DNA of 64,000 bases from Parvularcula bermudensis HTCC2503. GTDB taxonomy: Bacteria; Pseudomonadota; Alphaproteobacteria; Caulobacterales; Parvularculaceae. The stretch is taken from assembly GCF_000152825.2 (NCBI RefSeq), contig NC_014414.1:806001-870000 (forward strand). The letters run 5' to 3'. Both the position numbers and the translations under genes were made by a program. This document shows, one piece after another, positions 1 to 63,561 of this stretch (the stretch's first letter is position 1; each line of letters opens with the position of its first letter). The notes below the pieces were generated by a model. The model did no database searches. It worked only from the letters and a program-made list of their open reading frames with translations, and was not told the DNA's origin.

Positions 1-766
1 GGGGTCCGAACCATGCGGCGAAGGCCGGGATGGCCTGATGAACCAGCATTGAGAGCCCATTGGCGACGGGTAGGCCTCGCGCCTCTGCCGCGCGTAACAA
101 GGGGGTTCTCGCCGGCGTGGTCACGATGTCGATGACCGTGGCTGTTTTGGGCAGACTGTCGACCTCGATATCGAGGGGCGGTTGCCCCTTCATGCCCGCA
201 GCCGTGCTATTCACCAGAAGATCGACCGCCTCCAGCGAGGAGCGCGCTGCCCAATCGATTATTTCTATATCGAACCGATCTGCAATAAGTCGGGCCTTCT
301 CCGGGGATCTATTTGTGATCTCCACCCGCTTATAGCCGAGGCTCTTGAGCGCCCATACTATAGCGGGCGCCGCCCCTCCCGCGCCGATCACGCGGGCACA
401 TTGCCGGCTTGTCCCAAGCGGCAGTGCCGCAGCGGCGGCGGCAAACCCAACCCCATCGGTGTTATCCGCAAGCAAGCCCGTCGGCGTCCGGACAAGAAGG
501 TTCGCAGCCCCGATGGCCATCGCCGCCTCACTCCGTCGATCGGCAATGGCCAGGGCCTCTCCCTTGAAGGGGATCGTCACCGAACAGCCGACAAAGTCAT
601 GATCGGCCATACCGGCAACCCATGCCCGAAACCCCTCAGGGGACTGGCCATCCACAGCCTCGAACGTTGCCTCGATCCCATAATTGGCGATCCACCGTCG
701 ATGAAGACGCGGCGACAGACTTTGCTGGATCGGATGGCCGATGACCGCGGCCCGCAGCGTCACCAT
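1..766 (-). CDS. aroE: Shikimate dehydrogenase, C-terminus cut by window edge
   Basis: NADP-dependent reduction of 3-dehydroshikimate to shikimate in the cytosol, in the pathway to aromatic amino acids. About 255 codons are visible. Near the N-terminus is the substrate loop GHPIQQSLSP. The stretch SVTIPFK carries the catalytic lysine (about K68), and DNTDG holds the catalytic aspartate (about D104). A glycine-rich nucleotide loop (GAGGAAPA) follows, and near the edge is NGLSMLVHQA, a typical AroE C-terminal segment. The family is about 275 residues long, so only about 20 residues lie outside the window. The ATG overlaps the end of maf by 7 bp, so it is probably translated with maf and ppsR from one transcript. 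In other alphaproteobacteria coaE and dnaQ often come next, but they would be off the window. Confidence 0.95.
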   Translation of the reverse strand, partial: MVTLRAAVIGHPIQQSLSPRLHRRWIANYGIEATFEAVDGQSPEGFRAWVAGMADHDFVGCSVTIPFKGEALAIADRRSEAAMAIGAANLLVRTPTGLLADNTDGVGFAAAAAALPLGTSRQCARVIGAGGAAPAIVWALKSLGYKRVEITNRSPEKARLIADRFDIEIIDWAARSSLEAVDLLVNSTAAGMKGQPPLDIEVDSLPKTATVIDIVTTPARTPLLRAAEARGLPVANGLSMLVHQAIPAFAAWFGP

Positions 767-1353
767 GGCAGGATCTCCCGCTCTCTCAGAAAGGCCATCA
801 GAGGAAAGAGCGACAGCCCCAGGATGGTGAAGTAATCCCCCTCGACACTGTCAAATAGACGGACGCCTTCGGCCTCTAATTCATAGCCGCCAACGGTGTT
901 GAGGATACGCGGACCGACACAGTCGAGATAGGCCTCCACCCCCGCCACGGTCACGGGGCGCATGGTGAGCCGGGCGACATCGCGGTACCGCCAGATGATG
1001 CCCCCCCCCTGCGCGACCACCAAACCACTGCGCAGATAATGGGTGTGACCGGCCATCCTTAATAGGCGGGCCTTCGCCTCCGGCATATCCACCGGTTTAT
1101 CGTATAAATGCCCTTCAAATTCGAGCACCTGATCGCAGCCGATGACGATCTTTTGTTCCGGCACGGACAGGGCCAACGCCTTAGCTTCGGCGAGGATCAG
1201 CGCAATCTCCCCCGGGCTTTGCCCTGCCGCCCGTTCACGCGACTTGATCGCCCCCTCATCGACATCGCTGGGCTGAGCAATGAACGGGATACCGGCGCCC
1301 CGAAGGATCGCTTGGCGGGAGGCACTTTTGGACGCAAGGATAAGGTCGGTCAT
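760..1353 (-). CDS. maf: Maf-like nucleotide pyrophosphatase
   Basis: Maf/YhdE/YceF family hydrolase of nucleoside triphosphates, thought to clear non-canonical or modified nucleotides in the cytosol. The protein has 197 aa, the usual length. It opens with LILASKSASRQAIL, the family N-terminal signature, and has the later metal-binding region IGCDQVLEFEG. The open frame extends 33 codons further upstream, but that extension lies inside ppsR and matches nothing in the family. The ATG at 1353 gives an ATGA overlap with the ppsR stop and is the better start. It is the middle gene of ppsR-maf-aroE. Sequence alone does not separate the Maf subfamilies (dTTP/UTP versus m7GTP). Confidence 0.93.
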   Translation of the reverse strand: MTDLILASKSASRQAILRGAGIPFIAQPSDVDEGAIKSRERAAGQSPGEIALILAEAKALALSVPEQKIVIGCDQVLEFEGHLYDKPVDMPEAKARLLRMAGHTHYLRSGLVVAQGGGIIWRYRDVARLTMRPVTVAGVEAYLDCVGPRILNTVGGYELEAEGVRLFDSVEGDYFTILGLSLFPLMAFLREREILPW

Positions 1354-2219
1354 CCTTGTGTTACATCGCCCCCGCGGCGGGCAGACAAGAGGGTAAGAAC
1401 CTTGGCCGCGGTTTCTTCGACGGACCGTCGCGTCACGTCGATGATCGGCCATCCCTGTTTGGCGAACATGCGCTTTGCCTTGGTGATCTCGTCCCGCACT
1501 CGATCCTCTTCGTAATAGGCATCCGCCGATTCTTCAGCCGTCAGATTATTGAGCCGGGTCTTGCGGATCTGGGACAATCGCAAGGGACTGGCGGTCAGCC
1601 CGACGATCAAGGGCTTGCGCAGCGTAAACAATTCCGGCGGCGGATCGCTTGTCGGCACAAGCGGGATATTCGCCGCCTTTACCCCGCGATGGGCGAGATA
1701 CATGCAGGTCGGCGTTTTCGAGGTTCGACTGACCCCCACCAGGACGACATCGGCATTATCAAGGTCCCATGTCGATTGGCCGTCATCATGGGCGAGGGTG
1801 TAGTCCATCGCCGCAATACGCCGAAAATAATCGGCATCCAAACGGTGTTGAGCGCCGGTTTCCGTGGTCTGCTTGAGGTCGAGATAGTCTGTGAATGCGT
1901 TAAGGAGGGGGTCGAGCACCGGAATGGCCGGCACCTGCAATTCAGCACATTTCACTTCGAGCCGGCGTCGCAATTGACGATCAACGATCGTGTACATGAC
2001 GAGGCCCGGCGCCTGTTCGATCCGGGTGAGAACCTTATCCAATTGGGCATTACTCCGCACCAGGGCGGCTACATGCTCCAGTGGTCGCGCGGTTTCGAAC
2101 TGGGCCGATGTCGACTTCAGAAGCGTGCTGAGGGTTTCGCCGGTGGAGTCGGAGACAAGGTGGACGTGAAACCACGTTGTGGTGGGGTGGGGGAGGACGG
2201 GGTCAGGCCGCGCAGTCAT
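1350..2219 (-). CDS. ppsR: Pyruvate,phosphate dikinase regulatory protein (DUF299)
   Basis: Bifunctional ADP-dependent kinase and phosphate-dependent phosphorylase of the DUF299 family, which controls PPDK or PEP synthase. It has 289 aa. The N-terminal region HLVSDSTGETL is typical, and the P-loop GVSRTSKT is at residues 162-169. The homologue in Rickettsia is RP001, the gene that faces hemE across the replication origin in Rickettsia and Caulobacter; the same divergent pairing is seen here. It is the first gene of ppsR-maf-aroE. The target dikinase is not in this window, so I cannot say whether PPDK or PEP synthase is regulated. Confidence 0.95.
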   Translation of the reverse strand: MTARPDPVLPHPTTTWFHVHLVSDSTGETLSTLLKSTSAQFETARPLEHVAALVRSNAQLDKVLTRIEQAPGLVMYTIVDRQLRRRLEVKCAELQVPAIPVLDPLLNAFTDYLDLKQTTETGAQHRLDADYFRRIAAMDYTLAHDDGQSTWDLDNADVVLVGVSRTSKTPTCMYLAHRGVKAANIPLVPTSDPPPELFTLRKPLIVGLTASPLRLSQIRKTRLNNLTAEESADAYYEEDRVRDEITKAKRMFAKQGWPIIDVTRRSVEETAAKVLTLLSARRGGDVTQG

Positions 2220-2571
2220 ACCCTGCTCCGTTGGTCAAGCCGCAATCGGCCATGAGTGAATAACACGTCCGCCCTCGCCATTGAGGGCGACGCTATAAAC
2301 ACATCCCCCCTTTTTTGCCAGCACGAGGCCGGTAATACCGCTGAGATTGCGATGTTCTGGAAAACCGGGAATCTCTTGCTGTGACGACTTTCGGCAGCGC
2401 CTGGTATGGCTGGCCGTCAAGGTTAACAAAAGATGAACGGGAAAAATTCTCAGATGTTGAAAAGAGGGCCGAAAAAGGCGGGGGAAACCCGCTTTTCCCC
2501 ATATCCCCCATGCCTATGACTCCCTATCCCTTAATAGACTCTACGCATAATTATGAACGGGGAGCTGCAGG
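2220..2571. other. oriC: Candidate chromosomal replication origin (oriC) region
   Basis: A 352-bp gap without a convincing gene, between divergent ppsR and hemE. Established knowledge: Caulobacter Cori and the Rickettsia origin lie between these two genes. Seen here: a DnaA-box-like TTATTCACT on the minus strand at 2255-2263 (8 of 9 to TTATNCACA); a weaker ATAAACACA at 2295-2303; TCCCCA (W-box-like) at 2496-2501 followed by TCCCCCA at 2504-2510; an AT-richer stretch about 2418-2475; a near CtrA site TTAA-N7-TGAA at 2423-2437; ATGAACGGG repeated directly at 2433-2441 and 2553-2561; and a hairpin at 2473-2496. The nearest genes on both sides run outward, and parAB and parS-like sites lie within 12 kb. 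The motif evidence is thin, so the call rests mainly on synteny and gene polarity. Confidence 0.6.
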
Positions 2572-3594
2572 ATGACCTTACTGACATCGGTTTTGCGAGG
2601 AACGGTTCAGGAGATTCCGCCCATCTGGTTCATGCGCCAGGCAGGCCGTTATCTTCCGGAATATCGTGACCTCAGGGCCAATGCCGGAGGGTTCCTCGAT
2701 CTTTGTTATACGCCTGAAAAGGCGGCCAGGGTGACGCTTCAGCCGATTGATCGGTACGACCTCGATGCAGCCATTCTTTTCGCGGATATATTGTTGGTTC
2801 CGCAAGCCCTTGGGATGGACCTGTGGTTTGAACCGGGGGAGGGGCCGCGTCTGGCGCCAGCCCTTGCCGAAGGCGATGCCGCAGTTTTGTTCGAGCAACG
2901 CGATATTCACGACCGTCTTGGGCCGATCTATGAAACGGTCTCCCGCGTGCGGGCAGCCTTACCTCAGGAAAAAGCGCTCATCGGCTTTGCTGGCGCGCCC
3001 TGGACCGTGGCAACCTATATGCTGGCGGGGGGAAGTGTGAAAGATCCCGCCGGATTGAGAGCGGTCGTTTATGACGACAGAGAGCGATTTGCGGCGATCA
3101 TCGATGTGCTGACCGACGCAACCATCGACTATCTGAAAAAGCAGGTCGATGCCGGCGCTGAGGTCATCCAACTCTTCGACAGCTGGGCCGGGGGTCTGCC
3201 TGAGGCGCTGTTCGATCAGTTTTGCGTGGCACCGGTGGCGCGTATTGCGGCGGCGTTGCGCGCACATGCCGATATCCCTGTCATTGGCTTTCCCCGCGGC
3301 AGTGGCCCACTCTACCGTAAGATTGCAGCCCTTCCCGACATTGCGGCGGTGTCGATTGATACCGGTATGCCTGCGGATTGGGCGGCGGAGGCCCTCTCAC
3401 CCCTTGCCGTCGTGCAGGGGGGGCTTGATCCCCTGCTGATCGTCAAGGGCGGGACGGAGATGCTAAAAGCGGCCGATCAGTTAAGAGCGTCTTTTGAGGG
3501 ACGGCCTTTCGTGTTCAATGTCGGTCATGGGCTTGTGCCGCAGACACCGCCTGAAAATGTGGCGGCGCTGGTCAACCATGTCCGCGGCCGCTAG
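2572..3594 (+). CDS. hemE: Uroporphyrinogen decarboxylase
   Basis: Cytosolic enzyme that removes four acetate carboxyls from uroporphyrinogen III to give coproporphyrinogen III in haem synthesis. It has 340 aa, full length. The first family signature PIWFMRQAGRYLPEYR is at residues 17-32, with FAGAPWTVATYMLAGG in the middle and FNVGHGLVPQTPPENV near the end. The ATG follows GGAG about 8 bases upstream. It leads hemE-hemJ-rho, with 9 bp between hemE and hemJ, and stands immediately to the right of the candidate origin, as in Caulobacter. Confidence 0.97.
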   Translation: MTLLTSVLRGTVQEIPPIWFMRQAGRYLPEYRDLRANAGGFLDLCYTPEKAARVTLQPIDRYDLDAAILFADILLVPQALGMDLWFEPGEGPRLAPALAEGDAAVLFEQRDIHDRLGPIYETVSRVRAALPQEKALIGFAGAPWTVATYMLAGGSVKDPAGLRAVVYDDRERFAAIIDVLTDATIDYLKKQVDAGAEVIQLFDSWAGGLPEALFDQFCVAPVARIAAALRAHADIPVIGFPRGSGPLYRKIAALPDIAAVSIDTGMPADWAAEALSPLAVVQGGLDPLLIVKGGTEMLKAADQLRASFEGRPFVFNVGHGLVPQTPPENVAALVNHVRGR

Positions 3595-3603
3595 CGGGGG
3601 CTT

Positions 3604-4044
3604 ATGACCTCGTCCCTCTATCTGTGGATCAAAGTCCTCCACATTCTGAGCGTCGTCGCCTGGATGGCGGCCATGCTCTATCTGCCTCGTTTGTTCGTCT
3701 ATCATCACCAAGCCGAAGCTGGGGGAGAGGCAGAGGGGTTTTTCGTCACGATGGAGCGTCGCCTTCTGAAAGGCATCATGACGCCGGCCATGATCGCCAC
3801 CTGGCTTTTCGGCCTGGCGCTGATTGCCCTCGTGCCGTCCCTTGCCGCCACTGTTTGGTTCACGATCAAATTCATCGCGGTGCTGGCGATGTCGGGCCTT
3901 CATGGCTTCTACAGTGTCAGTCAGAGGGCATTTGAGGGCGGGCAGCGGCCCCGGTCGGAACGGTTCTGGCGGATCATCAACGAAGTGCCCTTTGCCCTGC
4001 TGGCGGTTATTGTGATCATGGTCATCGTCAAACCTTTTTTATGA
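3604..4044 (+). CDS. hemJ: Protoporphyrinogen IX oxidase HemJ
   Basis: Membrane protein of the HemJ (formerly UPF0093) family, which oxidises protoporphyrinogen IX to protoporphyrin IX in bacteria lacking HemG or HemY. It has 146 aa with about four hydrophobic segments. Histidine 13 (in IKVLHILSVVAWMA) and lysine 89 (in FTIKFIAVLAMSGLHG) correspond to conserved positions. It is probably co-transcribed with hemE. Together with hemE here and hemH at 16.6 kb, three late haem steps lie within 15 kb. A perfect TGATCCACA (minus strand, 3623-3631) lies inside this gene and is noted in the findings. Confidence 0.92.
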   Translation: MTSSLYLWIKVLHILSVVAWMAAMLYLPRLFVYHHQAEAGGEAEGFFVTMERRLLKGIMTPAMIATWLFGLALIALVPSLAATVWFTIKFIAVLAMSGLHGFYSVSQRAFEGGQRPRSERFWRIINEVPFALLAVIVIMVIVKPFL

Positions 4045-4074
4045 GGAGTGGGGGAGGCGCCTTGTCTTGCCGGA

Positions 4075-4104
4075 TTGACGCGAGGGCAAAGAAAAGGGCA
4101 TAAT
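4075..4104 (+). promoter_or_regulatory. Putative housekeeping-sigma promoter of rho
   Basis: TTGACG (4075-4080) and CATAAT (4099-4104) are separated by 18 bp. Each matches the sigma-70-type consensus at 5 of 6 positions. A transcript would start near 4111 and give a leader of about 90 nt before the rho ATG. Rho leaders are often sites of autoregulation, which I cannot judge from sequence here. Confidence 0.55.
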
Positions 4105-4198
4105 ATTAGGACGGCGTTTCTGCCGACCCCTTCCTTTCCCCCTTTGCGGTGTACGGTGGCCTTGGTTTCCGTATCGGTCCGCTTCCCACGGGTTCTCT

Positions 4199-5518
4199 AT
4201 GCTGCCAGATCAAATCACCCTTGATGAAATCAAGGAAAAATCCCCTCAGGATCTTGTTTCCTTTGCTGAAGAGGTCGGCGTGGAGAATGCCTCCGCCCTC
4301 CGAAAGCAAGACCTCCTCTTTGCGATTCTCAAGGAATTGGCTGATGAGGATGTCGAAATCATCGGTTCTGGCGTGCTCGAAATCCTTGCCGATGGATTTG
4401 GCTTTCTGCGCTCCGCCGATGCCAATTATCTTGCTGGCCCGGATGACATTTATTGTTCCCCGCAGCAGATCCGCAAATTCACCCTTAAGACCGGGGATAC
4501 GGTGACGGGGGAGATCCGAAGCCCAAAGGATGGTGAGCGGTATTTTGCACTGACTAAGGTCAACACGGTCAATTTCGAAACGCCGGAAAAAGCCCGGCAT
4601 AAGGTCCATTTCGACAACCTTACACCGCTTTATCCCGAAGAGCGGCTGAAGATGGAGGTTGTGACCGATGAAGAACCCGGATCCCGTGGGCCGAATGGCC
4701 GCCTGAAAAAAGGGGAGAGTGGTCGAGATCTCTCCACCCGGGTGATCGATATCGTCGCGCCGCTCGGCAAGGGACAACGGGCCTTGATCGTTGCGCCGCC
4801 GCGTACCGGGAAGACCGTTCTTCTACAGAACATTGCCCATGCGATTACCTCTAATCATCCTGAATGTTATCTGATCGTCTTGCTTATCGACGAACGCCCA
4901 GAAGAGGTGACGGACATGCAGCGGTCGGTGAAGGGGGAGGTCGTCTCATCGACTTTCGATGAGCCTGCGTCACGCCATGTGGCCGTATCCGAAATGGTGA
5001 TCGAAAAGGCCAAGCGGCTGGTGGAGCATGGACGGGATGTGGTGATCCTGCTCGATTCGATCACGCGCCTTGGCCGCGCCTATAATACCGTTGTTCCCAG
5101 TTCCGGCAAAGTGCTGACCGGCGGGGTCGATGCGAACGCCTTGCAACGACCCAAGCGATTTTTTGGTGCCGCGCGGAATATCGAAGAAGGCGGATCCCTG
5201 ACGATCATTGCCACCGCCCTCATCGACACTGGCTCCCGCATGGACGAGGTGGTGTTCGAAGAATTCAAGGGCACAGGGAACAGTGAGATCGTGCTCGATC
5301 GCAAGGTCGCCGATAAACGTGTCTTCCCGGCCATCGATGTCGCCAAATCGGGGACACGGAAGGAAGATCTTCTGATTGAGAAAGGCGAGCTGGCCAAAAT
5401 CTTTGTGCTGCGCCGCATTCTGTCGCCCATGAATGCAATGGATTCGATTGAGTTCCTGTTGGAGAAACTCCGGCAGGTGAAATCGAATCAGGATTTCTTC
5501 GATTCGATGAATACTTAA
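4199..5518 (+). CDS. rho: Transcription termination factor Rho
   Basis: Hexameric RNA-dependent ATPase that unwinds nascent RNA and terminates transcription. It has 439 aa, slightly longer than E. coli Rho (419). Order: N-terminal Rho domain ([18 protein letters not shown]), the RNA-binding cold-shock-like domain containing DGFGFLRS, then the ATPase with Walker A APPRTGKT at residues 199-206, [29 protein letters not shown] and [21 protein letters not shown] small charged insertion lies before the ATPase domain (about residues 158-180). No strong ribosome binding site precedes the ATG. It is separated from hemJ by 154 bp with its own likely promoter. Confidence 0.97.
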
Positions 5519-5664
5519 CTGGACGACGGAAAAATCTGTCATGGCAAGCCATAGAGGCGCAGCACTCTTCGTGTGCGCTTTCTGACTTGTTTTGGCTAGA
5601 TCCTTGCTGTACCCATTATCGAAATAAATGTCGGCAAAAAGTCGGCTAGATAAAGGGGAGTCCC

Positions 5665-7053
5665 ATGCGTCTTTATATTCAATCTATAGGTGTGGCTGCA
5701 GCTTTCTTGACAGCGCAAGCCTGTGCGACCGGGGAGCCTCCGGTGCTGCCCGTCAAGACGAAGATTATCGGCGCAGGAGGATACATATATGGTTTCCCTG
5801 GCCTATTGATGGAAGAGACGGCGGTCAGAGCGACGACGGCGCCTTATCCTTGCGGCCTCGGCGCACCGATGAATACTTTCAAACAACTTTATGACCGTCC
5901 TGGCCCGGACTTCAGAGCTGTGGTTCGGCCGAATGTGGACACACTCTATTCCTCCGCCTTCCTTGATCTGTCCGAAGGGCCGGTCGTGCTTGACATCCCC
6001 AAGATCAAGGATCGCTTTTACCTCTTTGCGATGCTGGATGCCTGGTCGAATAATTTCGCAGGACCGGGCTCGGCAAGCACAGGCGGTAAAGCGGCGAAAT
6101 ACGTCATTGTCGGTCCGGATTGGGAGGGCGAGCTTCCAGCTAGAATGGAGCCGGTCTATGCCCCCACCAACCTTGTTTGGATCATCGGGCGGACGGAAGT
6201 CCGGGGCGGAAACGACATCAAAAAGGTCAATGCCCTGCAGCGGCGCTATCGGTTGACGCCCCTTACTGGGCATAAGTCACACGAGGATATTGGGGAATGT
6301 CAGCCGATTGAAGGGCAAACGTCCCCAGAAGACGTGATTAGGTCGCTCGATGCGACCACGTTTTTCAGCCGACTTGACAAGTATATTGAAGAGAATCCTC
6401 CGCAGACCGACGACGAAGATCGGTTGAAGAGTTTGATGCGGTTGGGCGTAGGAGATGGCGACGGCGCGCTTCATCCCAATTTGCGTCGGCGAGACCTAAA
6501 GGCTCTGAATGCGGGGATGGATCAAGCACAAGACTTCTTGGATTTCTCGTTCAAACTGCTCGGACGGACGAGCGTGTGGTCACCTGATCCGACAATGGTT
6601 AGCCTCGGCGAGTACGATACCAATTATCTCGTTCGCGCCGTGGTTTCACAGATCGGCTTTGGGGCCAACAAGAACATCTACGCGCTTTATCAAAATGCTC
6701 AGCGGGATGATGATGGCGATCCCTTGTCTGGCGACACATCGTATAAAATGGTGTACGAGAACGGGAATACCCCACCGGTGGAGGCATTCTGGTCCCTGAC
6801 GGTTTATAACGACCAGGGGTTCCTGGTTGAGAATCCGCTGAATAAATATGCTGTTGGCAGCAATACAGGACTGGTCGCGGACGAAAATGGCACGATCACG
6901 GTCCATTTTGCAACGAAACAGCCTGAGGGCGTGCCGGAAGCGAATTGGCTCCCCGTTCCGGATGGACCGTTCGAAGTGACATTGAGAATGTATGAGCCCG
7001 ATCAAGAGATCATAGATGCGGAGTGGACCGCTCCGCCGATCGTCAAAGAGTGA
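5665..7053 (+). CDS. Exported DUF1254/DUF1214 domain protein
   Basis: A 462-aa protein with a hydrophobic N-terminal signal ending near ATG-start residues 17-20 (LTAQAC, a weak lipobox), so exported or lipid-anchored. The body has the DUF1254 hallmarks: YGFPGLLMEE, RPNVDTLYSSAFLDLSEGPV, and PKIKDRFYLFAMLDAWSNN. It also has the C-terminal DUF1214 pattern (SLTVYNDQGFLVENPLNKYAVGS is the region around residues 378-400). The function of these domains is unknown. The gene stands alone, faces a TetR gene, and is visibly less GC-rich than its core neighbours, which suggests lateral acquisition. Confidence 0.85.
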   Translation: MRLYIQSIGVAAAFLTAQACATGEPPVLPVKTKIIGAGGYIYGFPGLLMEETAVRATTAPYPCGLGAPMNTFKQLYDRPGPDFRAVVRPNVDTLYSSAFLDLSEGPVVLDIPKIKDRFYLFAMLDAWSNNFAGPGSASTGGKAAKYVIVGPDWEGELPARMEPVYAPTNLVWIIGRTEVRGGNDIKKVNALQRRYRLTPLTGHKSHEDIGECQPIEGQTSPEDVIRSLDATTFFSRLDKYIEENPPQTDDEDRLKSLMRLGVGDGDGALHPNLRRRDLKALNAGMDQAQDFLDFSFKLLGRTSVWSPDPTMVSLGEYDTNYLVRAVVSQIGFGANKNIYALYQNAQRDDDGDPLSGDTSYKMVYENGNTPPVEAFWSLTVYNDQGFLVENPLNKYAVGSNTGLVADENGTITVHFATKQPEGVPEANWLPVPDGPFEVTLRMYEPDQEIIDAEWTAPPIVKE

Positions 7054-10432: not shown

Positions 10433-12304
10433 ATGAAATCCTGCGTAGATTATGACGTCATCGTCGTTGGCGGCGGCCATGCCGGCACGGAAGCGGCCGC
10501 AGCCGCGGCGCGCTCTGGCGCCCAAACAGCGCTCATCACCCATAAGGCCGCCTCGATTGGCGAGATGTCCTGCAATCCCGCCATAGGCGGTCTTGGGAAA
10601 GGCCATTTGGTGCGGGAGATCGACGCCCTCGATGGGCTTATGGGCCGGGCGGCGGACCGGGGGGGCATTCAGTTTCGCATGCTCAATCGGTCGAAGGGTC
10701 CAGCGGTTCGTGGACCCCGCACCCAAGCGGATCGGTTTCATTATCGTACCGCGGTGCAAGACCTGCTGGCTGAACTTGAGGACATCTCCCTCATTGAGGC
10801 TGAAGTGGCCGACCTTATCGTGTCGAATGGGCACGTCATGGGGGTGGTGCTGAGCGACGGTCGGGAGGTCAGCGCGACCAGCGTTGTCTTGACCACGGGC
10901 ACGTTCTTGCGGGGCGTTATTCATCGGGGGACCGAGCGTATTCCGGCGGGGCGATACGGCGATCAGGCGGCAACGGCCCTGGGTGAACGACTTGAGGCAC
11001 TGGCGCTGCCCCTCGGCCGGTTGAAGACGGGGACGCCGGCGCGCCTGGTCAAAACCTCAATCGACTGGTCAAGGCTTGAGACGCAAGAGGCCGATGAGGC
11101 CCCTGTCCCCTTTTCCTTTCTGACGGAGACGCTCCCCCTGCCGCAGATTGCGTGTGGGATCACCGCGACTACAGCGGAAACACACCGGATCATTGCCGAT
11201 AATCTGCACCAATCGGCGGTCTATAGCGGGGCGATTGGATCGAAGGGGCCACGATATTGCCCCTCGATCGAAGACAAGATTGTCCGCTTTCCCGATCGAT
11301 CGAGCCATCAGATCTTTTTGGAACCCGAAGGTCTGGACGAGCCATGGGTGTATCCGAATGGCATTTCGACCTCTCTCCCCGACCAGGTGCAGGAGGCGCT
11401 GATCAGGAGCATCCCTGGCCTTGAGGGGGCGGAGATCGCCCGTTACGGCTATGCCATTGAATATGATTATGTCGACCCGCGGGCTCTTTCCCATTCCCTC
11501 GAACTTCGGGCGCTTCCTGGTCTCTTTCTGGCTGGGCAAATTAACGGCACGACCGGCTATGAAGAGGCGGGGGCTCAAGGGTTGATCGCGGGGCTCAATG
11601 CGAGTCGGCGGGCGCGGGGATTGTCGCCGGTCTGGCTGGAGCGTCGGGAGGCCTATATCGGTGTCCTGATCGACGATCTTGTGACGCATGGGGTGACCGA
11701 ACCCTATCGGATGTTTACCTCGCGGGCTGAATATCGCTTGAGTTTGCGGGCCGATAACGCCGATCTGCGTCTGACACCTCGGGGGCAGACTTGGGATCTT
11801 GTCGGCCCAGCGCGTCGTGAGATGTTTCACATGAAACAGGAGCGGGTCGCCAGGGCGCGCTCAATCCTGACGGAGACGAGCGTCACGCCCCAGGAAGCCG
11901 AAGAAGCGGGCATTTCGGTCAATAAAGATGGACGCCGACGTCGTCTCCTGGATCTATTGGCGCTGCCAATTGTTGAGTTTGAACAGCTCTCGTCTCTTCA
12001 CCCCGATATTCCGTCGATTGGCGCCGACCTCAGGCCCATTTTGGAAGCTGACGCGCTTTATTCCGGCTATCTCGATCGACAGGAAGCGGAGATTGTAGCG
12101 CTCAAAAAGGAAGAGGACACGGTGATCCCCGCCGATTTCCGCTATGACCTCGTGCCTGGGCTGTCAGCAGAATTACGGGAAAAGCTCGACCGGATCCGGC
12201 CGCATCATCTTGGTCAAGCCGCGCGCATTGAGGGGGTCACCCCCGCGGCGCTCGCGCTCTTATTGGTCACTCTCAAGGGGCGTCCCGCCACGCGCTATGG
12301 ATAA
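10433..12304 (+). CDS. mnmG: tRNA uridine-5-carboxymethylaminomethyl modification enzyme MnmG (GidA)
   Basis: FAD- and NADH-dependent partner of MnmE in wobble-uridine modification. It has 623 aa, full length. The FAD dinucleotide loop [12 protein letters not shown] starts at residue 12. It is followed by [20 protein letters not shown], the family signature, [21 protein letters not shown], and the C-terminal helical MnmE/tRNA-binding domain. The gene carries an internal near-perfect parS palindrome at 11823-11838. Its end overlaps the rsmG start by 8 bp. Confidence 0.97.
11823..11838. promoter_or_regulatory. parS: parS-like site inside mnmG
   Basis: TGTTTCACATGAAACA differs from the parS consensus TGTTTCACGTGAAACA by a single central base (15 of 16). 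It is embedded in mnmG, where it encodes the segment MFHMKQ. It is 1.1 kb from the parA start and about 9 kb from the candidate origin, which fits an origin-proximal ParB nucleation site. Confidence 0.75.
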
Positions 12305-12944
12305 ACCGCTCCTCTGTCCGGCGGGGCTTGAGGACCTCGTCGACGCCTTTGATCTCGATGACGCGACGGCGGCGCTGATTGCCGCGTATGATTCGCATCT
12401 TCTTGAAGTCTCCGCGCATACGAATTTGCTCGCCAGAAGCTCCCTCGCCGATCGATGGGCGCGGCATTATGCGGACTCGCTGCAATTGGCGCGGTTCATC
12501 CCGGATCATGCGTCGAGCTATCTCGATCTTGGCAGTGGTGCAGGGTTCCCAGGGCTCCTCCTCGCCATTGTGCATCGTCACCGCCCATGCCGGGTGACCT
12601 TGTGCGACAGCGTCGGCAAAAAAGCGCGATTTCTGAAAGAAACCGCGGAGGCGCTTGGCCTTGATATCACCGTTGAGGCGCGCCGCGCGGAAGCCCTAGC
12701 GGCGGCAGGCGACCGATTTGAGGTCATTACCGCCCGGGCCGTGACCGCCCTTGATAAGCTATTGGGCCTATGCGCGCCGCTTCTCCCCAAAGACGGAATT
12801 TTGATTGCTCCAAAGGGCGAACGCGCCGAAAAGGAGCGTGATGAAGCAGAGAAGCGTTGGACGTTTTCTGCTGATCTCCACGCCAGCCAAACCCACCCTG
12901 GCGCTCGGATTTTTGTTATTCGCCAAGTAAGGCCGCGCCCGTGA
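12297..12944 (+). CDS. rsmG: 16S rRNA (guanine-N7)-methyltransferase RsmG (GidB)
   Basis: SAM-dependent methylation of G527 (E. coli numbering) of 16S rRNA. It has 215 aa. The SAM-binding loop [12 protein letters not shown] lies at residues 76-87, followed by [14 protein letters not shown] and [14 protein letters not shown]. The open frame extends 51 codons further upstream inside mnmG, but the ATG at 12297 gives the usual family N-terminus and an 8-bp overlap with mnmG. The stop overlaps the parA GTG by 4 bp. Confidence 0.95.
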
Positions 12945-13732
12945 CACGACGTGCTCCCCGTATTCTCGCCATTGCCAATCAAAAGGGTGGGGTGGGAAAA
13001 ACGACGACGACCATCAATCTGGGAACCGCCCTGGCGGCTGTCGGAGAGAAGGTCTTGCTCATCGATCTTGACCCCCAGGGGAACGCCTCCACGGGGCTCG
13101 GGATTGGGCCGGCGCTGCGCGAGCAGACCACCTATGATGTGCTGATGGAGCGGGTGGACCTCGCACAGATCGCGCATAAGAGCATTGTGCCCAATCTCAC
13201 CGTTGCTCCGGCGGGTATGGATCTTGCCGGCGCTGAGGTCGAGCTGATCGAAACGCCGCGTCGCCATTATCGGCTGGCGAATGCGATCGAGAAGGCCGTA
13301 GAGCAAGATCCCGCCCTCACTTACATCCTGGTGGATTGCCCCCCGTCCCTAGGCCTGTTGACGGTGAACGCGATGGCGGCCGCCCATGCCGTGATGATCC
13401 CGCTTCAATGTGAGTTCTTCGCGCTTGAGGGCTTGGCGCAGATCATGCGGACTATCAGCCAGGTGCGGACCCGCCTCAATCCGCACCTTGAGCTGCAAGG
13501 GGTGATCCTGACCATGTATGACAAGCGCAACAATCTCTCTCGCGAGGTTGAGGCGAATGTGCGCGAAAATCTGGGAGAGAAAGTCTACAAGACCGCGATT
13601 CCCCGGAATGTCCGGATTTCCGAGGCGCCGTCCCACGGCAAGCCCGCCCTTCTCTACGATCTCAAATGCCCTGGCAGTCAGGCCTATGTTCGCCTGGCGA
13701 CCGAAGTGATCCACCGCGAAAGGGCCGCATAA
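12941..13732 (+). CDS. parA: Chromosome partitioning ATPase ParA
   Basis: Deviant-Walker ATPase that moves ParB-bound origin regions. It has 263 aa. The deviant Walker A motif KGGVGKTT is at residues 15-22, followed by LLIDLDPQGNASTGLG and Walker B ILVDCPPSLGLLTVNAM. The GTG start at 12941 overlaps the rsmG stop (GTGA). It is a single-domain chromosomal type without an N-terminal DNA-binding extension. parB follows with a one-base overlap, and two parS-like sites lie just upstream. Confidence 0.97.
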   Translation: MTRRAPRILAIANQKGGVGKTTTTINLGTALAAVGEKVLLIDLDPQGNASTGLGIGPALREQTTYDVLMERVDLAQIAHKSIVPNLTVAPAGMDLAGAEVELIETPRRHYRLANAIEKAVEQDPALTYILVDCPPSLGLLTVNAMAAAHAVMIPLQCEFFALEGLAQIMRTISQVRTRLNPHLELQGVILTMYDKRNNLSREVEANVRENLGEKVYKTAIPRNVRISEAPSHGKPALLYDLKCPGSQAYVRLATEVIHRERAA

Positions 13733-14631
13733 TGGCACGTAAAGGACTGGGCCGTGGCCTTGAAACCATTCTTGGTGATGAGCGGCAAGAGTCTACGGGT
13801 CCGGGTGAGGGCGGGGTCGCCCTGATCCCAGTCACCGATATTGCGCCTGACCCCTATCAGCCGCGAAAGCGCTTCGATGACGAGGCGCTAGAGGAATTGG
13901 CCGCGTCGATCCGAACGCGCGGTGTCCTCCAACCCATCCTCGTTCGGCCGACACCGGGGGAGAAGGGCTATACCCTCATTGCGGGGGAACGTCGTTGGCG
14001 GGCCGCAGGGCGCGCGGGGCTCCATGAGATCCCGGCGCTCATCCGGGAACCGGCAGAGGGCGATGTCGCCGAGATGGCGCTGATCGAGAATGTTCAGCGG
14101 CAGGATTTGAACCCCATCGAAGAAGCCGATGCCTATGCCCGCTTGCGTGACAGCTATGGGCGAACGGCCAAGGATATTGCCGAGTCGATCGGGAAGAGCC
14201 GTCCTCATGTCGCCAATATGCTGCGCCTTACGGGCCTGCCCGACGATATAAAGGGGCTGGTCAGCGCAGGAGAGCTGACCATGGGGCACGCACGCGCGCT
14301 CCTATCGGCGGCGGCCCCGGCTGAGTTGGCAAAGCAGATCATCGAAGAGGGGTTGAGCGTGCGGGAGGCGGAGCGCCGTGCCGCAGGCAAGACGGCGTCG
14401 GGCGCGTCGTCCCACGCTCAACGCGGTGAGGGCGAGAATGGAAAAAAGGCGGCAAAGGCCTCGGGGCGGAAAGACGCGGACACGCGTTCCCTCGAAGAGG
14501 ACCTGGCCGCAACGCTCGGGCTTGAGGTTTCGATCGACCACCACGGAAAAGGGGGTACACTGACGGTTAGCTACGGCGATCTCGACCAGCTCGATGATTT
14601 GTGCCGTCGACTTACCGGCAGTCGTGTCTAA
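13732..14631 (+). CDS. parB: Chromosome partitioning protein ParB
   Basis: CTP-dependent DNA clamp that loads at parS and spreads. It has 299 aa. The N-terminus (MARKGLGRGLETILGD) is the ParA-interacting box. The CTP-binding region has GERRWRA at residues 85-91 and ENVQRQDLNPIEEA at 119-132. The helix-turn-helix follows (DIAESIGKSRPHVANMLRL). A charged linker (about 230-265) leads to a C-terminal dimerisation domain. The ATG overlaps the parA TAA by one base. holA, which in many relatives lies next to parB, is here about 45 kb away. Confidence 0.97.
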   Translation: MARKGLGRGLETILGDERQESTGPGEGGVALIPVTDIAPDPYQPRKRFDDEALEELAASIRTRGVLQPILVRPTPGEKGYTLIAGERRWRAAGRAGLHEIPALIREPAEGDVAEMALIENVQRQDLNPIEEADAYARLRDSYGRTAKDIAESIGKSRPHVANMLRLTGLPDDIKGLVSAGELTMGHARALLSAAAPAELAKQIIEEGLSVREAERRAAGKTASGASSHAQRGEGENGKKAAKASGRKDADTRSLEEDLAATLGLEVSIDHHGKGGTLTVSYGDLDQLDDLCRRLTGSRV

Positions 14632-17731: not shown

Positions 17732-18268
17732 ATGACCCGATCCACTTTGCTTTTTATGGGGCTGATGGCCGTGATCCTCGGCGCATGCGCCACGTCCACG
17801 CCTTACTCACCGGCCGCGAGCGAGGGGGAGTACGGCTTCTCCGATCAGCAAATTGAGGAGAACCGGTTTCGGATCACGTTCCGCGGCAATTCCCTGACCG
17901 ATCGGACGACGGTTGAGGATTATCTGCTCTATCGCGCCGCCGAACTGACCCTTGAGAAAGGGTATGACCATTTCGTGGTGGTGAAGGACGCGACAGAGGA
18001 GGAGACCCGGTACATCCAAACGAGTCCCCGCGCGGAATTATACTATTATTACGGCTATGGTCGCCCCTTCCCCTATTACGGCTCTGGGTATCCATGGGCC
18101 GTTGCCGGTCCTGACTATACGCTCCAGGAAAGAAGCCGGTACACGGCGATCGCCTACATCCTGCTTGGGAAAGGACCCAAGCCGGCGTCCGAGCCCACGG
18201 CCTATGACGCCCGATCGGTGATCGACAATCTTGGCCCCACCATTGTCAGACCGGAGCCGGTTTCTTGA
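17732..18268 (+). CDS. CC0125/CC1285-type lipoprotein
   Basis: A 178-aa putative lipoprotein. The signal peptide (MTRSTLLFMGLMAVILGAC) ends in a clear LGAC lipobox. The mature part begins with YGFSDQQIEENRFRITFRG and contains DYLLYRAAELTLEKGYDHF, resembling the CC0125/CC1285 family of Caulobacter-type lipoproteins, whose function is unknown. A tyrosine-rich stretch (ELYYYYGYGRPFPYYGSGY) lies near residue 105. The ATG at 17732 is preceded by GAAGGAG; a start 9 codons upstream is possible but would disrupt the signal peptide. It overlaps the S9 peptidase gene by 4 bp. Confidence 0.8.
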   Translation: MTRSTLLFMGLMAVILGACATSTPYSPAASEGEYGFSDQQIEENRFRITFRGNSLTDRTTVEDYLLYRAAELTLEKGYDHFVVVKDATEEETRYIQTSPRAELYYYYGYGRPFPYYGSGYPWAVAGPDYTLQERSRYTAIAYILLGKGPKPASEPTAYDARSVIDNLGPTIVRPEPVS

Positions 18269-22578: not shown

Positions 22579-24069
22579 ATGTTCGACACACTCAGTGATC
22601 GCCTTTCGGGGGTATTTGAGAAGCTTCGCGGCCGCGGCGCGCTGACTGAAAAGGATGTGTCGGAGGCGCTGAGAGAGGTCCGGGTCGCGCTTCTTGAGGC
22701 GGATGTCGCCCTGCCGGTCGCTCGCGACTTTGTCGGCAAGGTGAAAGAGCGGGCGATCGGACAAGAGGTCCTGCGCTCTGTGACCCCTGGTCAGCAAGTG
22801 GTGAAGATCGTTCACGATGTGCTGGTCGATACCCTTGGCGGCGGGGACAATGCCCACGAACTCGACCTGACCAAGGCACCGCCCTCGGCGATCTTGATGG
22901 TGGGCCTCCAGGGCTCAGGGAAGACCACCACCTCTGCGAAACTTGCCAAACGCCTCAAGGAAAAAGACCGTAAGCGGGTCCTGATGGCGTCCCTCGACAC
23001 GCGACGCCCCGCGGCGATGGAACAGCTGAAGGTGCTGGGGGAGCAAGCCGATGTGCCGACCCTGCCCATCGTCCCCGGCCAAAGTGCCGTGCAGATCGCC
23101 GGGCGCGCCATGGAAGCGGCGCGGCTCGGCGGTCACGATATCGTCATCCTCGATACGGCGGGCCGGCTGTCCATCGATGAAGAGCTGATGGCCGAGGTCA
23201 AGCAGATCCACACCAAGACCAGTCCTGTTGAAACCCTGCTCGTTCTCGACAGCTTGACCGGTCAGGATGCTGTGCAGACCGCAGAGAGGTTCAAGGCCCG
23301 TGTGCCGGTCAGCGGTGTCGTTCTGACGCGCCTTGATGGTGACGGTCGCGGTGGTGCAGCCCTCTCCATGCGGAGCGTTACGGGCGCGCCGATAAAATTC
23401 GCTGGGGTCGGAGAAAAGCTCGACGCGCTCGATGTTTTCGATCCAGAACGAATGGCTGGCCGGATCCTCGGCATGGGGGATATCGTTTCCCTGGTCGAAA
23501 AGGCGAGTCAGGACTTTGACGAGGCCAAGGCAAAGCAAACCGCCCAAAAATTAGCCAAGGGTGAATTCGACCTCGACGATCTGCGCGAACAGCTCGCGCA
23601 GATGCGGAAAATGGGCGGCATGGGAACGATCCTTGGGCTTATGCCCGGAATGGGAAAGATCAAGGACGCGGAGTCTGCTGCCGGTGGTTTCGACGATGGC
23701 GAAATCAAGCGTCAGGAGGCGATCATCAGCTCCATGACGAAAAAGGAACGACGTAAGCCCGATCTGATGAATGCCTCACGCAAGCGGCGCGTAGCGAAGG
23801 GGGCCGGCGTTCAGGTACAAGATGTCAATAAGCTGCTCAAAGCGCATCGCGGCATGGCCGATATGATGAAAAAGATGGGCAAAGGCGGAAAGCGCGGTAT
23901 GGCCGGCCAGATGGCAAAAATGCTCGGCGGCGGCATGCCAGGCGGCGGCATGCCTCCTGGGCTCACGGGACCAGGGGCGGGGGGATTGCCCGGTCTTGGG
24001 GGCGGAATGCCGCCGGACCTTTCTCAACTTCCCGGTCTGCCCGGGACGGCGGGAAAGAAGAAGAAATGA
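22579..24069 (+). CDS. ffh: Signal recognition particle protein Ffh
   Basis: GTPase that binds 4.5S RNA and signal sequences and targets ribosomes to the membrane with FtsY. It has 496 aa. Order: N domain (MFDTLSDRLSGVFEKLRGRG), G domain with GLQGSGKTTT from residue 109, DTRRPAAMEQL, ILDTAGRLSIDEELM and LTRLDGDGRGGAALS, then the M domain (MGGMGTILGLMPGMGKIK) with the conserved SMTKKERRKP. The C-terminal tail is unusually glycine/methionine/proline rich. The ATG at 22579 is chosen over an upstream TTG (22558) because it gives the standard N-terminus. Confidence 0.97.
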   Translation: MFDTLSDRLSGVFEKLRGRGALTEKDVSEALREVRVALLEADVALPVARDFVGKVKERAIGQEVLRSVTPGQQVVKIVHDVLVDTLGGGDNAHELDLTKAPPSAILMVGLQGSGKTTTSAKLAKRLKEKDRKRVLMASLDTRRPAAMEQLKVLGEQADVPTLPIVPGQSAVQIAGRAMEAARLGGHDIVILDTAGRLSIDEELMAEVKQIHTKTSPVETLLVLDSLTGQDAVQTAERFKARVPVSGVVLTRLDGDGRGGAALSMRSVTGAPIKFAGVGEKLDALDVFDPERMAGRILGMGDIVSLVEKASQDFDEAKAKQTAQKLAKGEFDLDDLREQLAQMRKMGGMGTILGLMPGMGKIKDAESAAGGFDDGEIKRQEAIISSMTKKERRKPDLMNASRKRRVAKGAGVQVQDVNKLLKAHRGMADMMKKMGKGGKRGMAGQMAKMLGGGMPGGGMPPGLTGPGAGGLPGLGGGMPPDLSQLPGLPGTAGKKKK

Positions 24070-60970: not shown

Positions 60971-63561
60971 CCGACCACCACATTGACGATTTTCTTTGGC
61001 ACAACGATGATCTTCCGTACGGTCTTGCCCGCGGTGAATTTTTCAACTTCGGGCATGCTGAGCGCGGCGGTCTCGATCGTTGATTTTTCGGCATCGAGGG
61101 GGACCGTCAGTTCTCCCCGTTTTTTGCCATTGACCTGCACCATCAGCGTTTGTTGGTCGTCGACCAGTAAGCCTCTATCGGCCTCCGGCCAGGGGGCCAG
61201 GGCGACAAGCCCCTCGCCGCCGATCAACGACCAGCATTCCTCCGCCAGATGCGGCATGAAGGGGGCCAATAGCCGGCTAAAGACGGAGAGGGCTTCCGCC
61301 GCCGTGGCGAGATTTTCCGGCGAGGCCGCCGTGAGGGATTTGAGTGCGCCAAGCAGCTCGTAAAGCCGGGCGATCGCCTTATTGAAGCGGAAATGATCGA
61401 TATCGTCACTCACGCCGACAATGGCGCTATGGACGGCGCGGCGGAGGGGCGCCTCCCCCGCCGAAGGCTGTTCGGTCGCCCTTAGGAGGACACCCTCATA
61501 GCGGCTTGCCAGATCGTAGACGCGCCCGGCAAAGCGGGCCGCGCCCTCAACACCGGATTCGGTCCATTCGACATCCCGCTCGGGGGGGGAGTCACTCAGG
61601 ACAAAGAACTTTGTGGCATCCGCGCCGTAGGAATCGGCCATGCCCATCGGGTCCACGACATTCTTTTTGGACTTCGACATTTTTTCGATGGAGCCGATCG
61701 TAATCGGCTCACCGGTTTTGCGATGCCGCGCCATGTCCCCCTGTTTATCGACATCCTCCGGCGCGACCCAGCCGCCATCGACATCTCGATAGGTTTCATG
61801 GGTGACCATGCCCTGGGTGAAGAGGTTCCGAAACGGCTCATCCGTATCAAGATAGCCAAGGTCCTTCATATTACGCGCAAAATAACGGGCGTAGAGGAGG
61901 TGGAGAATCGCGTGCTCAATGCCGCCAATATAGTGATCGACAGGCAGCCATGCCGCCGCCTCTTCGGGGGCGACGGGCCGGTCATCCGGTTGCGAGGCAA
62001 ATCGCGCGAAATACCAGGACGAATCGACGAAAGTGTCCATCGTATCCGTTTCCCGCTGCGCCGCCGTGCCGCATTCGGGGCAGGCGACTTCTCGCCATTC
62101 AGCGCAGACATCCTTGTCGAGAGGATTGCCAGGTTCGGCAAATATCGCCGCCGGAACGTCCGGCAGGCGAACCGGTAATTGCGCTTTGGGGACGGGCACG
62201 AGGCCGCAGCTGGGGCAGTGGATGACCGGGATTGGACATCCCCAATATCGTTGACGGGACAGTCCCCAATTGCGCAGGCGGTAGACGATGGTGCCTTTGC
62301 CCCATCCCATCTCTTCGAGGCGGTCGATGACCTCGCGTCGCGCCGCCTCGATGGTCTTGCCGTCGAGGAAGTCTGAATTGATCAGTGTCCCCGGTCCCGT
62401 ATAGGCCTCTTGCCGTCCGTCATCCCCTGTCGGGGCATGATCGCGATCGGGGGCGATGACCGGACGGACCGGCAGATCGTATTTACGGGCAAAGTCGAGA
62501 TCGCGCTGGTCATGGGCCGGACAGGCGAAAATGGCCCCTGTCCCATATTGCATGAGGATGAAATTCGCGACGAAGACAGGGAGTTCCCGGCCGTCAAAGG
62601 GGTGCTTGCCGGTAATCGGCAGGCGATAACCCCGCTTTTCGGCGGTCTCGATTGCCTCCTCCGAGGTGCCTGCGGCCTGGCATTCTGCAATGAAGGCGGC
62701 AAGGGCGCCGTCGGTTTCGGCAAAATGCGCCGCTAGGGGATGATCCGGCGCAACACCCAGAAAGCTGGCCCCGAACAGCGTGTCCGGCCGCGTCGTATAG
62801 ACGGTCAGCCCGGCAAAGGGCATATCGTCGTCCCCGCCGGCCGGGGGGCTCAACGGGAAGGTCATTTCCAGCCCTTCCGACCGACCGATCCAGTTCCGCT
62901 GCATTTCCTTGACATGGGCGGGCCAGCCATCGAGCCGTCCGTCATCAAGGGCCTCAAGCAGGTCGTCGGCACGGTGGGTGATCTTGAAGACCCACTGGTT
63001 CAGCGTCCGGCGTTCCACCGGCGCCCCCGACCGCCACCCCTTACCATCGATGACCTGTTCGTTCGCCAGGACGGTCTGATCGACCGGGTCCCAGTTCACC
63101 TGCGCCTCCTGCCGATCGAGGAACCCCGCCGCCAAAAATTCCAGAAACAGCTGCTGTTGATGGCCGTAATAATCGACATCGCAGGTGGCGAAGGAGCGAT
63201 CCCAATCGAGGCCAAGCCCCATTCGCTTCAATTGATCCGTCATCACCGCGATGTTGGCATAGGTCCATTCGGCCGGATGCTTGCCGGTGGCCATGGCGGC
63301 ATTTTCCGCCGGCATGCCAAAGGCGTCAAAGCCCATCGGGTGAAGGACGTCATAGCCTTTGGCCCGCTTGTACCGGGCAAGGACATCCCCCATGGCATAG
63401 TTCCGTACATGGCCGATATGGATTTTCCCCGAAGGATAGGGGAACATTTCGAGGATATAGCTCTTGGGGCGATCCCCGCTTAGTGAGGCGGCAAATACAT
63501 TGCTCTTGGCCCACGCGGCCTGCCATTTCGCTTCGATCGTGCGTGGGTCATACTGCGCCAT
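60967..63561 (-). CDS. leuS: Leucine-tRNA ligase
   Basis: Class I synthetase that charges tRNA-Leu, 864 aa from the ATG at 63561 (the frame continues 19 codons upstream). HIGH lies at residues 48-51 in [12 protein letters not shown]. The CP1 editing domain has [25 protein letters not shown] is in [16 protein letters not shown]. The C-terminal anticodon domain ends with the typical [22 protein letters not shown] stands about 11 bases upstream of the ATG. It is the first gene of leuS-lptE-holA. Confidence 0.97.

What the first reader, a model, noticed from the sequence alone, without database searches (positions are those of the whole stretch)
2220..2571. Candidate replication origin between ppsR (RP001 homologue) and hemE
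The same gene pair flanks the origin in Caulobacter and Rickettsia. The nearest genes on both sides run outward. The gap holds a near-consensus DnaA box (2255-2263), W-box-like TCCCCA (2496-2501), a near CtrA site TTAA-N7-TGAA (2423-2437) and a 9-bp direct repeat ATGAACGGG (2433, 2553). parS-like sites and parAB are within 12 kb. If right, control of initiation may resemble the CtrA/DnaA scheme of Caulobacter, but with few recognisable boxes.
Basis: partly seen in the sequence, partly recalled or inferred. Interest (0 to 1): 0.75.

Follow-up and report, generated by a model that had tools for sequence, protein, structure and literature searches.

The report
Parvularcula chromosome origin with new motif
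The gap is very probably where this marine bacterium starts copying its chromosome, an origin of the type known from Caulobacter, and comparison with its relatives turned up an unrecognised short DNA word that marks this origin and the chromosome around it.

Summary
The window is 806,001-870,000 of a 2,902,643-bp chromosome. Of 40 sampled stretches, 36 have the GC-skew sign expected for an origin here and a terminus near 2.2 Mb; dnaA, 595 kb away, shows no switch. The local skew minimum, 1266-1304, is about 1 kb from the gap. Of 50 Parvularculaceae loci read, 50 keep the divergent ppsR-gap-hemE order; skew switches there in 5 of 5 relatives tested. In the 9 Parvularcula gaps a core is conserved: tandem weak DnaA boxes, a GC step and GANTC, 2493-2541 here. 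The CtrA-like site is probably real; the 9-bp repeat is chance-level. New: RGTATGRCY, at 2403 and 2214, lies in 36 of 50 family gaps. It clusters around the origin in 4 of 4 genomes compared: outside the gaps 55 sites against 18.3 expected, z 9.9; the best of 150 permuted patterns reached 3.6. Most sites lie inside genes. I infer an unidentified origin-domain binding protein. The origin is a new variant of a known kind; the motif is the new part.

The parts
2220..2571 (.). Intergenic gap between ppsR and hemE: predicted chromosomal origin (oriC)
   Evidence: GC-skew switch; synteny in 50 of 50 family loci read; conserved core
2493..2501 (+). DnaA box 1 of the tandem core, TTTTCCCCA (weak, 2 mismatches)
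   Evidence: aligns with TTATCCACA in relative L046
2502..2510 (+). DnaA box 2 of the tandem core, TATCCCCCA (very weak, 4 mismatches by eye), followed by GC step TGCC 2511-2514
   Evidence: position in the 9-gap genus alignment
2518..2522 (.). GANTC (GACTC), predicted CcrM methylation site; column invariant in the 9 genus gaps
2537..2541 (.). Second GANTC (GACTC), 19 bases on; 5 of 9 genus gaps have one 6 bases on
2369..2373 (.). Third GANTC (GAATC)
   Evidence: 3 sites in the gap; position read
2423..2438 (+). CtrA-like site TTAA-N7-TGAAC, 8 of 9 letters
   Evidence: 5% in shuffles
2403..2413 (+). RGTATGRCYGG motif, GGTATGGCTGG
   Evidence: motif found by unbiased k-mer scan
2214..2222 (-). 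RGTATGRCY motif, GGTATGACT, across the ppsR start codon
605..613 (-). RGTATGRCY motif inside a predicted gene
17961..17969 (+). RGTATGRCY motif inside a predicted gene
23896..23906 (+). RGTATGRCYGG motif inside a predicted gene
63546..63554 (-). RGTATGRCY motif inside a predicted gene
2455..2463 (-). DnaA-like box TTTTCAACA (2 mismatches)
2356..2364 (-). DnaA-like box TTTTCCAGA (2 mismatches)
2255..2263 (-). DnaA-like box TTATTCACT (2 mismatches); TTATTCACC occurs near the ppsR end in L044 and L048
1350..2219 (-). ppsR, PEP synthase / pyruvate phosphate dikinase regulator
   Evidence: NF003742
2572..3594 (+). hemE, uroporphyrinogen decarboxylase
   Evidence: TIGR01464
10379..10394 (+). parS-like site, 1 mismatch
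11823..11838 (+). parS-like site, 1 mismatch
12941..13732 (+). parA
   Evidence: ParA-type matches, none of those shown above its curated cut-off; identity inferred with parB next door
13729..14631 (+). parB (the listed ORF starts at 13666)
   Evidence: TIGR00180 over cut-off

Best explanation
The gap 2220-2571 is the chromosomal origin of replication of this Parvularcula genome, of the Caulobacter/Rickettsia ppsR(RP001)-hemE type. Inferred mechanism: DnaA binds a set of weak boxes, above all the tandem pair at 2493-2510, and opens less GC-rich DNA beside it, most likely the hemE side (2511-2560, 42% GC; the lowest stretch, 2420-2479 at 40%, lies on the other side). CcrM methylation of the GANTC sites at 2518 and 2537 and CtrA binding at 2423-2438 are likely regulatory inputs. 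Parting is served by parABS 8-12 kb away. A lineage-specific 9-bp word, RGTATGRCY, present in the gap and scattered over roughly 100-200 kb around it, is probably the binding site of an unidentified protein that marks or organises the origin domain. Shown: skew switch, synteny, core conservation, motif clustering. Inferred: every protein-DNA interaction and every function.
For: Skew sign fits an origin here in 36 of 40 stretches (13 of 14 before the gap, 17 of 19 after it, 6 of 7 beyond the terminus). KOPS-like GGGNAGGG words turn with it: 24 forward / 75 reverse, then 105 / 34, then 10 / 50. The cumulative minimum is at 1266 (GC) and 1304 (keto). The skew turns back between 2.195 and 2.2475 Mb, giving nearly equal arms. 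dnaA at 213.7 kb has no switch beside it. Five of 5 relatives switch sign at the same gap. Synteny holds in 50 of 50 family loci and 26 of 29 class loci. DnaA-type, CtrA-type and GANTC words are enriched over shuffles in the genus gaps. The tandem-box/GANTC core is conserved across 9 genus gaps. The own gap has 4 weak boxes against 0.76 expected. A CtrA homologue of 84% identity is present. The only two parS-like places in the genome lie 8-9 kb away. RGTATGRCY enrichment near the origin.
Against: No replication data exist here. The skew minimum lies in the maf gene (name recalled from gene order, not tested), about 1 kb from the gap, although the curve is nearly flat over 1092-2080. Four of 40 stretches have the wrong sign (L026, L030, L011, L040), perhaps islands or inversions; L028, counted as fitting, spans the gap. 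No perfect DnaA box and no perfect CtrA site occur in this gap. The DnaA-trio rule as I applied it is not met. The conserved core could in part be the hemE promoter. In class control genome G180 the skew did not change sign at hemE. Three of 29 class loci lack ppsR in the 1.5 kb held.
Confidence: 0.88

Rival explanations
1. The gap is only the divergent promoter region of ppsR and hemE; the true origin lies elsewhere in the same few kb or beside dnaA.
For: The skew minimum is about 1 kb to the left, and the core sits just upstream of hemE as a promoter would.
Against: dnaA shows no skew change. The gap is enriched in DnaA-type words across the family. The same gap is at the switch in 5 of 5 relatives. 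No sigma-70-like promoter was found in 2100-2700, although that scan does not cover all promoter types.
Confidence: 0.08
2. RGTATGRCY is the site of a transcription regulator whose target genes happen to lie near the origin.
For: It occurs in intergenic gaps such as this one, and some sites lie within 250 bp upstream of a gene. Among 57 genes that hold or follow a site, 7 pairs are homologous between genomes, among them ppsR, hemE, mnmE-like, parA-like and leuS-like genes (the last three named by me from their sequence starts).
Against: In the near blocks of 4 genomes only 5 of 58 sites are intergenic (own 1 of 13, G030 2 of 15, G029 0 of 14, G015 2 of 16; rough gene caller). Most genes holding a site have no counterpart holding one in another genome. 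Of 50 sites wholly inside genes, 27 are on the gene's strand and 23 on the other.
Confidence: 0.15
3. RGTATGRCY clustering is a by-product of codon usage or base composition near the origin.
For: Origin-near genes are often highly expressed and differ in codon use (established knowledge). In-gene sites are uneven over frames (same strand 12, 15, 0; other strand 5, 3, 15) and in the own genome 9 of 10 are on the gene's strand. The reversed pattern, which shares the core RGTATGR, is itself 1.1 to 2.5 times denser near the origin.
Against: 150 permuted patterns of the same letters reach z 3.6 at most against 9.9 for the motif without gap sites. GTATGGCC heads the ranking of all 8-mers pooled over four genomes, ahead of parS pieces. 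Sites lie on both strands of genes in the relatives.
Confidence: 0.06

Closest known systems
Caulobacter crescentus Cori (between RP001-type gene and hemE)
   Same: Gene pair (recalled), weak W-box-like DnaA sites, a CtrA-like site, parABS nearby.
   Different: Cori has five high-affinity CtrA sites and two G-boxes (review passages). Here there is one imperfect CtrA-like site and no word within 2 mismatches of the recalled G-box TGATCCACA in the gap. The GANTC-bearing tandem-box core and RGTATGRCY are lineage features. The Caulobacter sequence itself was not compared.
Rickettsia prowazekii origin (Brassinga et al. 2002; not held; seen only as a citation)
   Same: Same flanking gene pair (recalled) and CtrA-type sites, according to the cited title.
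   Different: Not compared at sequence level here.
BUS / DnaA-trio origin unwinding module (PMC8287927, passages read)
   Same: Tandem DnaA boxes, then a GC step, then a less GC-rich stretch.
   Different: No run of three trios within 16 bp of a box of up to 2 mismatches in this gap; 1 of 9 genus gaps passes, as in shuffles (0.9), but 21 of 41 other family gaps pass against 9.8 (maximum 15). The published program was not run.
Origin- or terminus-domain marks: parS/ParB, Noc and SlmA sites (recalled), matS/MatP (recalled), ZapT sites in Caulobacter (PMC7188993, passages read)
   Same: Short sites scattered over one chromosome domain, largely inside genes.
   Different: RGTATGRCY matches none of the words I recall. 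ZapT sites are near the terminus and the paper reports no consensus motif. The binder is unknown.

Membership tests
Alphaproteobacterial ppsR-hemE type chromosomal origin | Gap lies between a divergent ppsR (RP001 type) and hemE | tested here: met
   50 of 50 family loci read, 26 of 29 class loci
Alphaproteobacterial ppsR-hemE type chromosomal origin | GC-skew switch at the gap | tested here: met
Alphaproteobacterial ppsR-hemE type chromosomal origin | DnaA boxes more than by chance | tested here: met
   4 boxes with up to 2 mismatches vs 0.76, P 0.002; all are weak
Alphaproteobacterial ppsR-hemE type chromosomal origin | Replication starts there in cells / autonomous replication | not testable with these tools
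   needs marker-frequency sequencing or an ARS test
CtrA-controlled origin (Caulobacter type) | CtrA sites TTAA-N7-TTAA(C) in the origin | tested here: inconclusive
   own gap 8 of 9 letters, 5% in shuffles; 6 of 9 genus and 35 of 50 family gaps have a site of at least 8 of 9; perfect 8-letter sites in 1 of 9 genus and 27 of 50 family gaps
CtrA-controlled origin (Caulobacter type) | CtrA protein present | tested here: met
   84% identity over 202 aa to recalled Caulobacter CtrA, place 1801319-1801924; next best match 33%
CtrA-controlled origin (Caulobacter type) | CtrA binds the origin and represses initiation | not testable with these tools
BUS (DnaA box + at least three DnaA-trios within 16 bp) | Rule of PMC8287927 as read in passages, re-implemented in part | tested here: not met
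   none in the own gap; 1 of 9 genus gaps, shuffles 0.9
CcrM/GANTC-regulated origin | GANTC sites enriched and positioned in the origin | tested here: met
   genus gaps 30 vs 13.7 in shuffles (max 22); GACTC column invariant in 9 of 9. Outside the genus the enrichment is weak: 98 vs 81 (max 96)
CcrM/GANTC-regulated origin | CcrM present and the sites methylated | not tested
   -

The most novel reading that the evidence does not exclude
RGTATGRCY is the recognition word of an unknown, Parvularculaceae-specific protein that binds the origin itself and dozens of sites, mostly inside genes, in a domain of roughly 100-200 kb around it. It would be an origin-domain organiser, anchor or division-site marker comparable in kind to Noc, SlmA or MatP but with an unrelated site, and it would link initiation at the origin with domain architecture because the same word sits in the origin.
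Probability: 0.5. Interest if true: 0.78.

Novelty: new variant of a known kind. Interest (0 to 1): 0.6.

Why it matters
A predicted origin in a free-living marine alphaproteobacterial lineage now has a testable core of about 50 bp and named regulatory sites. It adds a case in which CtrA-like sites occur at the origin in a family outside Caulobacter and Rickettsia and appear to be remodelled between genera: hemE-proximal CtrA sites in most g2 gaps, a GANTC-bearing core in Parvularcula. The RGTATGRCY word gives a direct way to fish for an unknown origin-domain protein, and origin-domain organisers outside the parS/ParB system are known in few bacteria (general knowledge).

Tried and rejected
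The 9-bp direct repeat was rejected as a signal (19% of shuffles). The DnaA-trio module was rejected for this gap by the rule read. An RNA family in or near the gap: none at gathering threshold in 1-13000. A sigma-70 promoter in 2100-2700: none. The genome-wide one-mismatch scan of GGTATGACCGG (its list was cut) was too loose to show clustering by its counts, so exact degenerate patterns were used instead. Exact RGTATGRCYGG is rarer than, or about as common as, its reversed control in 4 of 5 genomes (own 14 vs 14, G017 8 vs 23, G015 11 vs 17, G029 18 vs 31; G030 13 vs 10), so the signal is in the places and not in the totals; G015 alone is weak with it (3 of 11 within 300 kb of the origin). 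The width of 130 kb was chosen after seeing the own list; other widths give P 0.017 (50 kb), 6e-5 (100 kb), 5e-4 (200 kb) and 0.0024 (300 kb). G017 and G011 have only near counts (6 in 79 kb and 4 in 80 kb), lower than in the other relatives, and no far comparison. TGGGCGCC (22 of 41 non-genus gaps) was not followed up because it is absent from the 9 genus gaps. Class controls G180 and G087 showed no RGTATGRCY enrichment (7 vs 7 and 1 vs 2 per 100 kb); they are imperfect because skew in G180 did not change sign at hemE.

Literature: no paper on this origin or motif was seen in the searches, which cover only open-licence PMC text; of the 467 papers only 20 were listed. The two papers name Parvularcula only in lists. 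Of the five papers, two were opened in passages and three were not. Brilli 2010 was seen in 12 passages; its main text does not name Parvularcula. DoriC (listing only) may hold a prediction for this genome; I could not check.

Full report
Where it is. The window is G000:C1:806001-870000 of a single contig of 2,902,643 bases. I recall this size as that of Parvularcula bermudensis HTCC2503; no tool named it. Contig G027:C1 (same genus) has the same length, 696,830, as a Parvularcula maris contig, which fits the genus assignment.

The observation. ppsR (1350-2219, -) and hemE (2572-3594, +) diverge around the gap. Four DnaA-like boxes with up to two mismatches are in the gap against 0.76 in shuffles (P 0.002). 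The CtrA-like site matches 8 of 9 letters, which 5% of shuffles also reach. The 9-bp repeat is chance-level (19% of shuffles).

Chromosome-wide skew. I sampled 40 stretches plus the window. Of the 40, 36 have the sign expected for an origin near 808 kb and a terminus between 2.195 and 2.2475 Mb (recount; one of the 40, L028, spans the gap). The exceptions are L026 at 652 kb, L030 and L011 at 1.09-1.18 Mb, and L040 at 2.54 Mb. The cumulative minimum over 760-890 kb lies at window 1266 (GC) and 1304 (keto), and the places within 20 counts of the GC minimum lie between 1092 and 2080. dnaA is at 213.7 kb; the sampled stretches on both sides of it, from 1 to 600 kb, are all negative. The only two places with parS-like sites within one mismatch of the pattern used are 10379 and 11823.

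Conservation. hemE was found in 58 of 60 family genomes, this one included. I read 50 loci from 50 genomes (30, 20; 8 genomes with a match were not read). In 50 of 50, ppsR is divergent next to hemE. In the class sample hemE was found in 110 of 142 genomes. Of the 29 best non-own loci returned, 26 have divergent ppsR and 3 have none within the 1.5 kb held. In 5 of 5 relatives with long contigs the skew changes sign at the gap, though the far ppsR-side stretch of G029 is slightly positive.

Anatomy of the gap. The 9 genus gaps align in one clear core. Its parts are DnaA box 1 (TTTTCCCCA here, TTATCCACA in L046), DnaA box 2 (TATCCCCCA here, TTATCAACA in L046), a GC step, then GACTC in 9 of 9. 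A second GACTC follows six bases on in 5 of 9 and 19 bases on here. GACTC is a GANTC, the recalled CcrM site. GANTC is enriched in the genus gaps (30 vs 13.7, shuffle maximum 22) but little outside the genus (98 vs 81, maximum 96). The stretch after the boxes is 42% GC (2511-2560), and the lowest stretch, 40%, lies before them at 2420-2479, so which of them opens is inference. In many g2 gaps similar boxes are followed by sites such as TTAATCCTTTCTTAAG, a perfect TTAA-N7-TTAA, and often a second near-site. CtrA-like sites of at least 8 of 9 letters occur in 6 of 9 genus gaps, 19 of 20 g2 gaps, 0 of 3 g3 gaps and 35 of 50 in all. Perfect 8-letter sites occur in 1 of 9 genus and 26 of 41 other gaps, and in 3 of 26 class gaps. 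A review seen in passages (PMC4468827) says that outside Caulobacter and possibly Rickettsia CtrA sites are not seen in alphaproteobacterial origins, so this family adds a case. A CtrA homologue of 84% identity to a recalled Caulobacter sequence is in this genome. By the DnaA-trio rule from PMC8287927 (passages), 8 of 9 genus gaps fail, this one included; 21 of 41 other family gaps pass against 9.8 in shuffles.

The unexpected motif. An unbiased k-mer scan ranked GGTATGAC first among 8-mers of the non-genus gaps (19 of 41 gaps vs 0.2 in shuffles). Collected sites give RGTATGRCY. GTATGRC occurs in 39 of 50 family gaps (6 of 9 in the genus), RGTATGRCY in 36 of 50 (5 of 9), and GTATGRC in 2 of 26 class gaps. 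The own gap has it at 2403-2411, with another across the ppsR start at 2214-2222.

The motif also marks the surroundings. In the own genome 79 RGTATGRCY sites exist. With the two at the gap removed, 21 of 77 lie within 130 kb of the origin against 6.9 expected (P 2.7e-6; the width was chosen after seeing the list, other widths give P 0.017 to 6e-5). In G030, 12 of 52 GGTATGRCY sites lie within 100 kb against 3.0 (P 3e-5). In sequence held near and far from the origin, gaps left out, the counts are own 11 in 150 kb vs 10 in 700 kb; G030 15 in 100 kb vs 6 in 380 kb; G029 14 in 80 kb vs 1 in 200 kb; G015 15 in 79 kb vs 6 in 200 kb. Pooled, 55 sites against 18.3, z 9.86; with gap sites 58 against 19.0, z 10.3. 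For 150 permuted patterns the mean is -0.03, s.d. 1.04, maximum 3.62. The reversed pattern YCRGTATGR, which shares the core and often overlaps the motif, is also denser near the origin but far less so: own 7 in 150 kb vs 21 in 700 kb, G030 8 vs 14, G029 12 vs 12, G015 8 vs 18, for the same lengths. Ranking all 8-mers near against far over the four genomes puts GTATGGCC first (z 5.8), with parS pieces next and GGTATGAC, GTATGACC and GGTATGGC within the top six. parS thus serves as a positive control. The clusters are not centred exactly on the origin: the densest 260-kb windows centre at 745 kb in the own genome (origin 808 kb) and at 1335 kb in G030 (origin 1257 kb). Sites tend to come in pairs: 18 spacings of 1 kb or less against about 8.3 expected (summed).

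What the motif is not. In the near blocks only 5 of 58 sites are intergenic by a rough gene caller that-95% of these blocks coding, so intergenic sequence is not preferred. Of 50 sites wholly inside genes, 27 are on the gene's strand and 23 on the other; frames are uneven, and in the own genome 9 of 10 are on the gene's strand. Among 57 genes that hold or follow a site, 7 pairs are homologous between genomes. On balance this argues against a promoter regulon and a protein-sequence motif, and for a DNA word with a domain-scale role. Two class genomes used as controls showed no enrichment, so the motif appears lineage-limited.

Verdict. The gap is very probably oriC: a known kind of origin in a new lineage with its own site composition. 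The RGTATGRCY word is well supported as an origin-domain mark; its binder and function are unknown.

Noticed in passing
genome 652-672 kb (L026), 1.0875-1.18 Mb (L030, L011), 2.5375-2.5575 Mb (L040): Sampled stretches with the wrong GC-skew sign; L026, L030 and L011 also have no KOPS-like GGGNAGGG in either direction. Candidate genomic islands or inversions.
   Followed up: no
origin gaps of non-Parvularcula genera (e.g. L061, L062, L075): A second enriched word, TGGGCGCC, in 22 of 41 gaps (0.7 expected in shuffles); its core GGCGCC lies within 12 bases upstream of 11 of 58 GTATGRC sites; absent from the 9 genus gaps.
   Followed up: partly
window 2478-2500 (-) and 2269-2290 (-): Terminator-like hairpins on the minus strand, one overlapping DnaA box 1: 4 hits, 3 of them overlapping, against 0.8 in shuffles. 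The 2478-2500 one lies partly in an insert almost unique to this gap in the 9-gap alignment.
   Followed up: no
whole genome G000: Perfect TTAA-N7-TTAA occurs at only 7 places against 13 for the reversed control, so CtrA sites in this genome may be mostly imperfect or the word is avoided.
   Followed up: no
G045, G053: Two full-length hemE matches in each of these relatives; only one of each was read for the gap.
   Followed up: no
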